A DNA stretch of 64,000 bases from Cokeromyces recurvatus (Eukaryota; Mucoromycota; Mucoromycetes; Mucorales; Mucoraceae): the NCBI RefSeq assembly GCF_025118155.1, contig NW_026251401.1:186001-250000 (forward strand), written 5' to 3'. Numbering within the stretch: position 1 is the first letter of the stretch; the number at the start of each line of letters is the position of its first letter. Of this stretch, positions 31,261 to 33,400 are shown piece after piece. Below the pieces are notes generated by a model. The model was not told where the DNA came from, did not search any database, and saw only the letters and a program-made list of their open reading frames with translations. The position numbers and the translations under genes are program-made.

Positions 31261-31325
31261 CAGTCTGGGAAACTAGGTTGGGCCAATAAAAAATAATTGA
31301 GTCATATAAAAATTAAATTGGGACA
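31261..31325 (+). repeat. Left terminal inverted repeat
   Basis: Starts CAGTCTGGGAA and includes CTAGGTTGGGCCAATAAAA. It pairs with the reverse complement of 33336-33400 with about ten differences over 65 bp. Confidence 0.8.
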
Positions 31326-31559
31326 GAAATACGAAAATGAGACAGAGATGTGATTAAAGAGTAATTTAATTAAAGTAAAGACCATTGCGCATGTAGTGGG
31401 CTATGAATATATTGTTTTGCCCTGGCCAGTTCTGAGTGTTATTTTGTATGAAAAAAAAAAAACCTCTTGCAAGAAAAGAGGAAAATGTATAAAAGTAAAG
31501 AGAAACAGAATCAGTAAAAGAAATATTTGAACTACTATTACTATTATGATTGATTTAAC

Positions 31560-31813
31560 CAATTCACCAGTTTAACGCTAGAAATGATGAGTTCAGGAGG
31601 CGATTTGTTGTGGAAGATATAGTCCAATTCATGGAATATTCAGGTATACTACTGGCTAATGAACGGACCAAATACAAGAAACTTTGGGACGGCGGGGGGT
31701 TTGGAAGGAAGCCTGTTCAGGACGAAGGAAAGAGGGACAGGGATGGTGTGTGGCATTTGAAAGTGGCTATGCATGTCGAAGTAGATAGTAGCATGGTCCC
31801 AATTAAGCCTTGA
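31560..31813 (+). other. Coding-like open stretch inside the element, before the Fanzor
   Basis: An open frame runs through here with balanced composition (NDEFRRRFVVEDIVQFMEYS, WHLKVAMHVEVD) and ends at TGA at 31811-31813. It could be an N-terminal exon of the Fanzor gene, whose N-terminus is otherwise not located, or a separate cargo fragment. No family is recognised, and no clean splice connection to 32113 was found. Confidence 0.35.
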
Positions 31814-32112
31814 GTTTGAGTGGAAGACACAATGTTGCAGCTTGCTACCGGGAAGCCAACCAAGTCACCATCGAACATATTATTATTTTGGATCAGAAAT
31901 AATTGTAAGTCATGCTATTCTAATATTCAAAATAAAGACTGAGTCTGACTTTAACCGAGAAAAATTCCCTAAAAGTATAATTCAGACAGATCGACAGCTT
32001 TGTCACTTTGGAGCGTTTTCCATAAATGGTAGAATTTGTTGAAATTTGATACTTTATTAGTATGTGTAGATTCAAATTAAACATATGATCTGTCAGAAAT
32101 ATTTGCAACAAC

Positions 32113-33090
32113 ATGCTCCAGCGCATTTTACCAGTCGACGGTAAAGAAGCTGATGTGGTTCTATTGCAAAAAAAAATTACAAACAGTACAGATGAATACA
32201 GATGCATATCTAGCGAAGACGTAGAGAATTTTCCAATTGGGAGATGCTATGAAGAATGAAAACTTGACTGATGTTTCTCTTCGCGGGCTGGATCCCAACC
32301 GACATCAGGTTTTTGCTGCTGCTTATGGGGAGGGTGATGAATCCCATCAAATCAGGCGATGCTCTACTAAAGAGTATTATACCTTAACAGGGTCTATAAG
32401 ACACGCAAAGAAAGAAACAAAAAGAATGTCTCGAGAAATTATGGAGGATATACTTCTCAACATCCCTACAACCAGGAACACAAAGAAGAATAGGAAGAAT
32501 AGGAAGAAAAGAAAGAAGAGGAGAGACAAAGAAGCGAAAAAAAAAAGACAAAGAAGTTCCCCAGCAGACAAAGTGAGTATACTAGCATCAAAGCAGAGAG
32601 ACAAACACTATATTCATTAATTATTATTTCAGGAACGCCAAGAAGCTTTGGAAGCCTCAACCTTTCAAATACGACAAGAGTAAATTACCTGTTATAGCTT
32701 TCGGAAATGGCATGTTCGGAAAAGACGGTGTACATTTGAAGGGTCTCAGGGTGGGAGTGACAGGAGTTCTTTACAAACAACTCAAAATAAGACAGAAATC
32801 AGGAAAACTTTTACTTGCTTCTGTAGATGAGTTCAAGACTTCAAAGGTACAACAAGATTTACCAAAACTGGTCAAAGAATAATTTATTAATACTGTAAAT
32901 ATAGACCTGTCATGCATGTCTTCAAACATGCTTGACTGATGCTTACATTGGGTTACACAGTATTCAAGCTTGCCAAAGTTGCGAAATAATGTGGCAACGC
33001 GACGTTAACGCGTCGAAAAATATATTCAAGATCTCAAGACAAGTGATTGGTGGTCATGGGCGTCCACGGGAGTTCACGAGAGAACAATAG
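32113..33090 (+). pseudogene. Fanzor (TnpB-like RNA-guided nuclease) gene, copy 2, catalytic motifs present
   Basis: Eukaryotic relative of TnpB/Cas12. Visible parts: a segment with NSTDEYRC (about 32180) matching NSMYTDGYRC of copy 1; RuvC-I GLDPNRHQVFAA with Asp at 32291-32293 followed by STKEYYTLTGSIRHAKKE; a Lys/Arg-rich stretch (about 32480-32560); LPVIAFGNGMFGKDG and VDEFKTSK, with Glu at 32829-32831; an intron 32847-32904; a zinc ribbon CHAC...CQSC; RuvC-III WQRDVNASKNIF with Asp at 33001-33003; stop at 33088-33090. The Glu about 42 codons past the FGN site fits the displaced catalytic Glu reported for a subset of Fanzor/TnpB proteins. Frame is not continuous: a shift or unseen intron is needed between about 32185 and 32257, and the join over the probable intron 32573-32632 is out by one base. 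It is therefore probably damaged, though the C-terminal half and all recognisable catalytic positions survive. Confidence 0.8.
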
Positions 33091-33202
33091 GTCTTGGTTT
33101 TTTTTTTATATCGCCGTCTCGTACACGGTTTCTCTTGTTAAAGAAGTTTAGATATTTACAGATATGCTGTATCTATTTCTTTTTTTTTTTCCTCCAGAAA
33201 AA

Positions 33203-33263
33203 ATCTAACATTTTGTCTCAATTTAACTTATTCTCCTCTGTCCCATTTTCGCATCTATATCTC
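33203..33263 (+). ncRNA. Conserved block downstream of Fanzor copy 2 (candidate omega-RNA region)
   Basis: Lies 113-173 nt after the Fanzor stop and inside the right inverted repeat boundary. It matches the block at 2331-2392 at the same position relative to copy 1, although the intervening sequence is less similar. Guide RNAs of TnpB/Fanzor systems are transcribed from this position. No transcript evidence is available here, and the repeats GGGACA may instead be transposase-binding motifs. Confidence 0.4.
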
Positions 33264-33335
33264 CTTTTCATTTGGGTGTCCCATTTTCGTATTTCTATCC
33301 CAATTTTCCTGCTATTGTCCCAATTCTACATCCGT

Positions 33336-33400
33336 GTTCCAATTTAGTTTTTGAATGATCCAGTTATTCTTTTATTGGCCCAACCTAGCTTCCCAGACTG
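33336..33400 (-). repeat. Right terminal inverted repeat
   Basis: Reverse complement begins CAGTCTGGGAA and matches the left repeat at 31261-31325. TA follows immediately. Confidence 0.8.

What the first reader, a model, noticed from the sequence alone, without database searches (positions are those of the whole stretch)
31261..33400. Fanzor nuclease gene inside an inverted-repeat DNA element, catalytic residues retained
Seen: 65-bp inverted ends starting CAGTCTGGGAA, TA at the right junction, and between them a RuvC-I Asp (32291-32293), a Glu in VDEF (32829-32831), a four-Cys zinc ribbon and a RuvC-III RDVNA Asp (33001-33003). Known: Fanzors are eukaryotic TnpB relatives, several of which are RNA-guided DNA nucleases, often riding in Tc/mariner-like elements. 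Inference: this is a recently active Fanzor element in a mucoralean-type fungus. It shows up to two frame interruptions (32185-32257 and at the 32573-32632 intron).
Basis: partly seen in the sequence, partly recalled or inferred. Interest (0 to 1): 0.9.

Follow-up and report, generated by a model that had tools for sequence, protein, structure and literature searches.

The report
Dead Fanzor element in a fungus
This stretch is a broken, shortened copy of a jumping gene that once carried a Fanzor (RNA-guided DNA-cutting) gene in a mould, one of a family of such relics in that genome, so it is ordinary rather than a working Fanzor.

Summary
The element is real: 31261-33400 is bounded by 65-bp inverted ends (86% identical). 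Other copies in the same 28-Mb genome (inferred to be Cokeromyces recurvatus) share these ends; 22 of 26 scored ends abut TA. But 'recently active, catalytic residues retained' fails. Against a fuller 4.06-kb copy, this one lacks about 1.84 kb, including the N-terminal half. It also lacks 192 bp holding the most conserved RuvC block of the relatives, and has two frameshifts. One frameshift and the 192-bp loss are shared with a copy about 141 kb away; no similarity was found among the flanks compared, so the gene was probably dead before the element last moved. Across 14 copies the coding part varies as if neutral (omega about 0.88). No transposase was recognised inside. Separate elements with similar ends carry a DDE_3 transposase, the likely mobiliser in trans (inferred). 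Verdict: a degenerate non-autonomous Tc1/mariner-type Fanzor1 element, a kind described since 2013; low interest.

The parts
31259..31260 (.). left target-site position, reads CA where TA is expected
   Evidence: 22 of 26 family ends scored abut TA
31261..31325 (+). left terminal inverted repeat, CAGTCTGGGAAACTAGGTTGGGCC...
31315..31344 (+). subterminal GGGACA-type inverted repeat, left arm
   Evidence: I2, 93% complementary to 33277-33306
31345..32146 (+). 5' part of the element; no similarity to the three Fanzor relatives whose rows were printed
   Evidence: tblastn of P0016, P0018 and P0020 matches the element only from 32177 on; aligned among copies
32146..32147 (.). deletion scar B: about 1.84 kb of fuller copy L019 missing (1854 alignment columns); same junction in L010, L011, L012, L013, L014 and, within a few columns, L021
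32147..32572 (+). remnant of Fanzor exon with RuvC-I Asp (32291-32293); +1 insertion near 32225, in-frame 192-bp deletion scar at about 32473-32476, net +22 frameshift in 32515-32546
32573..32632 (+). inferred intron 1 (GTGAGT...TTTCAG)
32633..32846 (+). Fanzor exon with VDEF Glu (32829-32831)
32847..32904 (+). inferred intron 2 (GTACAA...AATATAG)
   Evidence: splicing gives DEFKTSK-TCHAC, as in relative P0020 DEFRTSKICNSC
32905..33090 (+). last Fanzor exon: four-Cys zinc ribbon and RuvC-III RDVNA Asp (33001-33003), stop 33088-33090
   Evidence: PF07282 E 6e-5, below its cut-off; relatives P0020, P0021 above it
33277..33306 (-). subterminal inverted repeat, right arm
33335..33400 (-). right terminal inverted repeat
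33401..33402 (.). TA at the right junction (target site)

Best explanation
31261-33400 is a dead, internally deleted, non-autonomous Tc1/mariner-type element that carries the remains of a Fanzor1 gene. Shown: matching ends in many copies, mostly TA targets, Fanzor-derived exons, deletions and frameshifts, near-neutral variation among copies, no transposase recognised inside. Inferred: it was moved in trans by a DDE_3 (Tc1/mariner-like) transposase encoded by other elements of the genome with similar ends (CAGCTGAAGAAAATAGGTTGGGCC against CAGTC...GAAACTAGGTTGGGCC). The internal deletions are probably products of incomplete gap repair after excision, and the copy looks like a mosaic made by exchange between copies. 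No working nuclease can be expected from it.
For: Same ends across copies. 128 end matches in the genome against 0 for the reversed pattern. Fuller copy L019 (4063 bp) aligns with Fanzor relative P0016 over its residues 10-531 at 40% identity, while the window aligns only with residues 395-471; P0020 adds the C-terminal exons. Deletions and frameshifts. The +1 near 32225 and the 192-bp loss are shared with L009, and no similarity was found among 26 flanks. Codon positions vary equally (136/141/138); 105 synonymous, 234 non-synonymous and 12 stop changes against 95.6/241.3/14.2 expected. No transposase family in the six frame pieces scanned. Ends with AAAATAG: 5 of 22 have DDE_3 inward within 2.5 kb (1 outward) and 0 of 22 a Fanzor match. 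Ends with GAAACTAGG: 54 of 86 have a Fanzor match inward (1 outward) and 0 of 86 DDE_3 (1 outward).
Against: The three catalytic acids and the zinc ribbon survive in this copy, and a frame of 131 aa is open at 32225-32617. The transposase link rests on 24 bp of end similarity plus GGGACA-type subterminal repeats; cross-mobilisation was not shown. Within 4.5 kb the split is less clean: 1 of 86 GAAACTAGG ends has DDE_3 inward and 2 of 22 AAAATAG ends have a Fanzor match inward. The neutrality count uses related copies and a majority codon as reference, so it is rough. The left TA is CA. No empty site was found.
Confidence: 0.9

Rival explanations
1. Recently active, functional Fanzor element with catalytic residues retained.
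For: Catalytic Asp, Glu, Asp and zinc ribbon are present at the stated places; ribbon-domain match 6e-5, below the cut-off.
Against: N-terminal half and a conserved 64-residue RuvC block missing, two frameshifts, one frameshift and the 192-bp loss shared with another copy, near-neutral variation.
Confidence: 0.02
2. A maintained mini-Fanzor: copies with deletion B keep a short RuvC-plus-ribbon protein with a role of its own. Predicted protein P0002, from a contig as long as C30 (where copy L011 lies), starts MLQRILP and runs into the RuvC part.
For: The deletion-B junction is shared by seven of 16 aligned copies, the window included, and no flank similarity was found, so deleted copies spread; P0002 has an in-frame Met before the RuvC part.
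Against: No clear excess of synonymous change; frame-changing indels in several copies; the window copy and L009 also lack the conserved block.
Confidence: 0.03
3. A 'ghost' element that still gives a guide RNA from its right end for a Fanzor protein made elsewhere.
For: The right end is kept; Saito et al. (PMC10432273, passages seen) describe ghost loci in Spizellomyces with end regions but no protein; the genome has 60 ribbon matches over the Pfam cut-off and a near-identical pair of Fanzors of another family with long open exons.
Against: No structured-RNA signal on the + strand (z 0.87; 166 of 200 shuffles fold at least as well), no Rfam match, and no clearly intact Fanzor of the same family among the copies whose frames were read.
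Confidence: 0.06

Closest known systems
Fanzor1 in Tc/mariner elements (Bao and Jurka 2013, PMC3627910; passages seen)
   Same: Fanzor1-type C-terminal motif, TIRs, TA target sites, Fanzor-only elements whose ends match those of mariner elements; degenerated coding sequences also drawn there
   Different: A family in Cokeromyces, not named in the passages seen; this copy is deleted and frameshifted
SpuFz1 / Spu-1 elements of Spizellomyces punctatus (Saito et al. 2023, PMC10432273; passages seen)
   Same: Profile of relatives matches 8gkh at 9.3e-9 over the RuvC region; inverted ends, many partial copies, no transposase found between the ends
   Different: SpuFz1 is an active enzyme; the ends there are 30-nt repeats, here 65 bp next to TA
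IS607 TnpB / Fanzor lineage with alternative Glu (Yoon et al. 2023, PMC10711439; passages seen)
   Same: Glu six residues before the first CxxC of the zinc ribbon, as in 'E-FKTSKT-CHAC'
   Different: DPN rather than the near-exclusive DPG after the RuvC-I Asp; inferred introns

Membership tests
Fanzor1 (gene lineage) | D-X(125,275)-[TS]-[TS]-X-X-[C4 zinc finger]-X(5,50)-RD motif (PMC3627910) | tested here: met
   In the spliced L017 copy: 221 residues from Asp to TS, TSKTC and four Cys, 5 residues to RD. In the window 493 nt of exon lie between Asp and TS, but across a frameshift
Fanzor1 (gene lineage) | PF07282 zinc-ribbon (TNB) domain | tested here: inconclusive
   Window exon 23.6 bits against a cut-off of 26.3; relatives P0020 and P0021 pass
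Fanzor1 (gene lineage) | sequence relation to a solved Fanzor1 | tested here: met
   Profile of 23 of 33 relatives against 8gkh (SpuFz1), E 9.3e-9; the single spliced L017 protein did not reach SpuFz1 at E up to 1
Fanzor1 (gene lineage) | complete protein with N-terminal half and intact RuvC | tested here: not met
   N-terminal half and a 64-residue conserved block deleted, two frameshifts. So it is a Fanzor1-derived pseudogene, not a Fanzor nuclease
Fanzor (function) | RNA-guided DNA cleavage with a right-end guide RNA | not testable with these tools
   Folding near the right end gave no signal
Tc1/mariner (element ends) | terminal inverted repeats and TA target site | tested here: met
   22 of 26 family ends scored abut TA; 17 of 17 left ends of related loci (for two of them the end starts 8 bases before the printed match). 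The window's own left side is CA
Tc1/mariner (element) | encodes a DDE/D transposase | tested here: not met
   No transposase family in six frame pieces of the window element; no printed DDE_3 match inward within 2.5 kb of 86 GAAACTAGG ends. Hence non-autonomous

The most novel reading that the evidence does not exclude
The window copy and its like are ghost guide donors in a network: DDE_3 transposases of one set of elements move Fanzor-only elements with matching ends, while Fanzor proteins from other loci use right-end RNAs of dead copies to cut empty sites and keep or restore copies, which would also explain the mosaic structure of this copy.
Probability: 0.06. Interest if true: 0.6.

Novelty: new member of a known kind. 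Interest (0 to 1): 0.2.

Why it matters
On its own it is a fossil. Its use is as a marker: it suggests that Fanzor-bearing mariner-like elements can keep spreading after the Fanzor gene is destroyed, that is, the nuclease is not needed in cis for movement. It also points to a small fungal genome rich in Fanzors (60 zinc-ribbon matches over cut-off in 28 Mb), with a separate near-identical pair of Fanzor loci with long open exons that would be a better subject.

Tried and rejected
Structure prediction of relative P0021 with 23 rows gave mean pLDDT 56.9 and pTM 0.33; too poor to search, so no fold search was run. Consensus folding of the 3' region with shuffled columns looked strong (z -5.6), but column shuffling does not keep dinucleotides; the single-strand fold with dinucleotide shuffles gave z 0.87 on the + strand and -1.90 on the - strand, so no guide RNA is claimed. 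Rfam: no match up to E 1. The empty-site search with joined flanks found only the window's own two halves. The end at C1:705175, near a 503-aa frame with a DDE_3 match, was examined as a partner; no second end was found in the 5 kb read. Five DDE_3 loci were read; four gave inverted repeats of other sequence and one (L069) gave none in the stretch read.

Limits of the end counts. One search replaces, which held a dummy ribbon entry and missed two of the 22 printed AAAATAG ends. One search uses all 86 ends with 0 or 1 mismatch printed (14 printed with 2 mismatches, and 28 of 128 not printed, were left out); 22 AAAATAG ends among the 100 printed of 159; 150 printed of 184 DDE_3 matches; and as Fanzor matches the 70 ribbons, the 88, and 29 of the 150 rows printed (of 169). 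All these counts are lower bounds.

Literature. The 2023 Science Advances Fanzor paper (recalled DOI) is not held. No held paper has both 'Fanzor' and 'Cokeromyces'; three with Cokeromyces recurvatus, genome and transposable elements were seen only as a listing. PMC11423790 was seen only in listings.

Full report
Setting. The window is C7:186001-250000 of a 28.05-Mb, 64-contig assembly. Two database proteins named Cokeromyces recurvatus come from contigs of 244,594 and 208,076 bases, the lengths of contigs C30 and C33 here, so the organism is inferred to be C. recurvatus (Mucorales). The element lies in gene-bearing DNA: of 9 long frames scanned in the window, Pfam matches include WD40, Fungal_trans, Las1, Na/H exchanger, ECM29, PP2A B56, MYND and TRAPPC-Trs85.

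The observation. The ends, the TA at the right and the cited residues are all there. A DNA search with the element found 113 matching pieces in the genome, many of them ends only. Sixteen copies or partial copies, the window included, were aligned. Of 26 ends of the family found with at most 5 mismatches, 22 abut TA; the four others are the window's left side (CA), L014 (TG), L017 right (TG) and L019 left (GA). A pattern for the first 24 bases of the end matched 128 times, against 0 for the same pattern reversed. In 17 related loci all left ends follow TA; in 9 of 17 a right end was found within the stretch read, each followed by TA.

What the gene is. The last exon scores 23.6 bits with PF07282, below the 26.3 cut-off. 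The spliced product of a better copy, L017, finds 33 proteins; 15 bear an organism name, 8 of them Rhizopus microsporus, the rest Cokeromyces (2), Mucor, Spinellus, Parasitella, Umbelopsis and Basidiobolus. A profile of 23 of the 33 matches SpuFz1 (8gkh) at 9.3e-9, mainly over the RuvC region. The single L017 sequence did not reach it; its best match was Cas12m at 0.0034. The published Fanzor/TnpB motif (PMC3627910, passages seen) is met by L017. The Glu sits just before the zinc ribbon, as described for Fanzors (PMC10711439, passages seen).

Why it is dead. Relative P0016 aligns with fuller copy L019 (C26:128355-132417, 4063 bp) over residues 10-531, but with the window only over residues 395-471; P0020 adds the C-terminal exons. 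L019 itself has internal stops. The window lacks 1854 alignment columns, about 1.84 kb in L019 (deletion B, shared with L010, L011, L012, L013, L014 and, with a junction a few columns off, L021). It also lacks 194 columns, 192 bases against L017; of the copies aligned only L009 shares this. The 192-base loss removes the stretch ...RFHLYQGVQRARQEMANVLINGGKKYNK..., which holds seven of the nine nearly invariant positions of the relatives' alignment. There is a +1 near 32225 and a net +22 in 32515-32546 against L017. L017, in turn, has lost the RuvC-II Glu (reads VDKF).

When it died. L009 (C7:73898-76129, about 141 kb away) shares the +1 near 32225 and the 192-base loss, but not the +22 (it has +21), and carries a +5 at an A-run near 32167 where the window has +3. 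It is the closest copy in all four segments (95.0, 97.8, 97.2 and 95.4%), though in the left segment only slightly (next 94.5%). No similarity was found among 26 flanks compared (L009 contributes one), so the two were probably separate insertions of an already broken gene. L009 carries deletion A (1317 columns, shared with L017, L018, L020), the window deletion B. These overlap and conflict with the lesions that the two share, so I infer exchange between copies; no formal test was run. Over 332 codons in 14 copies, minor variants at codon positions 1, 2 and 3 number 136, 141 and 138. Counts are 105 synonymous, 234 non-synonymous and 12 stop changes against 95.6, 241.3 and 14.2 expected, omega about 0.88. 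Minor variants per site are 0.403 in the 5' part, 0.291 in intron 1, 0.415 in intron 2 and 0.417 in the coding part (from the same call).

How it moved. No transposase was recognised inside. Elements with ends CAGCTGAAGAAAATAGGTTGGGCC hold DDE_3 matches: L070 is a 1739-bp element with TA outside both ends (its left end has 5 mismatches), and L071 and L072 show one end each. Of 22 AAAATAG-type ends, 5 have DDE_3 inward within 2.5 kb (1 outward) and none a Fanzor match. Of 86 GAAACTAGG-type ends, 54 have a Fanzor match inward (1 outward), and none DDE_3 (1 outward); counting zinc ribbons alone, 28 of 86 (0 outward). Within 4.5 kb, 6 of 22 AAAATAG ends have DDE_3 and 2 of 22 a Fanzor match inward, and 1 of 86 GAAACTAGG ends has DDE_3 inward (3 outward) and 61 of 86 a Fanzor match (lower bounds). 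Movement in trans is the best inference and was not tested.

Other Fanzors here. 70 PF07282 matches were found, 60 over cut-off. L073 and L074 are a 98-99.7% identical pair of Fanzor loci with long open exons; ends of the kind described here were not found in the stretches read. These suit functional study better.

Limits. Introns are inferred from sequence. The genome search scores only the best candidates. No guide RNA was found or excluded. The structural model was too poor to use.

Noticed in passing
window 2331-2409: An 82-position match, 77% identical, to the right-end part of the element (element bases 1921-2001) lies far upstream in the same window; probably another relic.
   Followed up: no
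L073 (C12:315000-318900) and L074 (C9:295500-299300): Two nearly identical Fanzor loci with long open exons and without the ends described here; looks like a recently duplicated Fanzor family.
   Followed up: partly
L019:1709-2416 and L073:738-1466: The N-terminal exon of fuller Fanzor copies carries a Cys-Cys-His-Cys knuckle (VCTSCGQRDHNSSMSYECPNYK; HCKKCCGDNHSTTRSPLCPYN); Pfam zinc-knuckle match for the first only E 0.093.
   Followed up: partly
C1:1646464-1655350, C23:637424-645331, C29:161895-169378: Pairs of CAGCTGAAG-type ends 7.5-8.9 kb apart; near the right end of the first lie a DDE_3 match and a 191-aa frame without a Pfam match.
   Followed up: partly
C23:982962-983073 and C30:24899-25223: Very short pairs of ends (112 and 325 bp), MITE-like relics of the same end family.
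   Followed up: no
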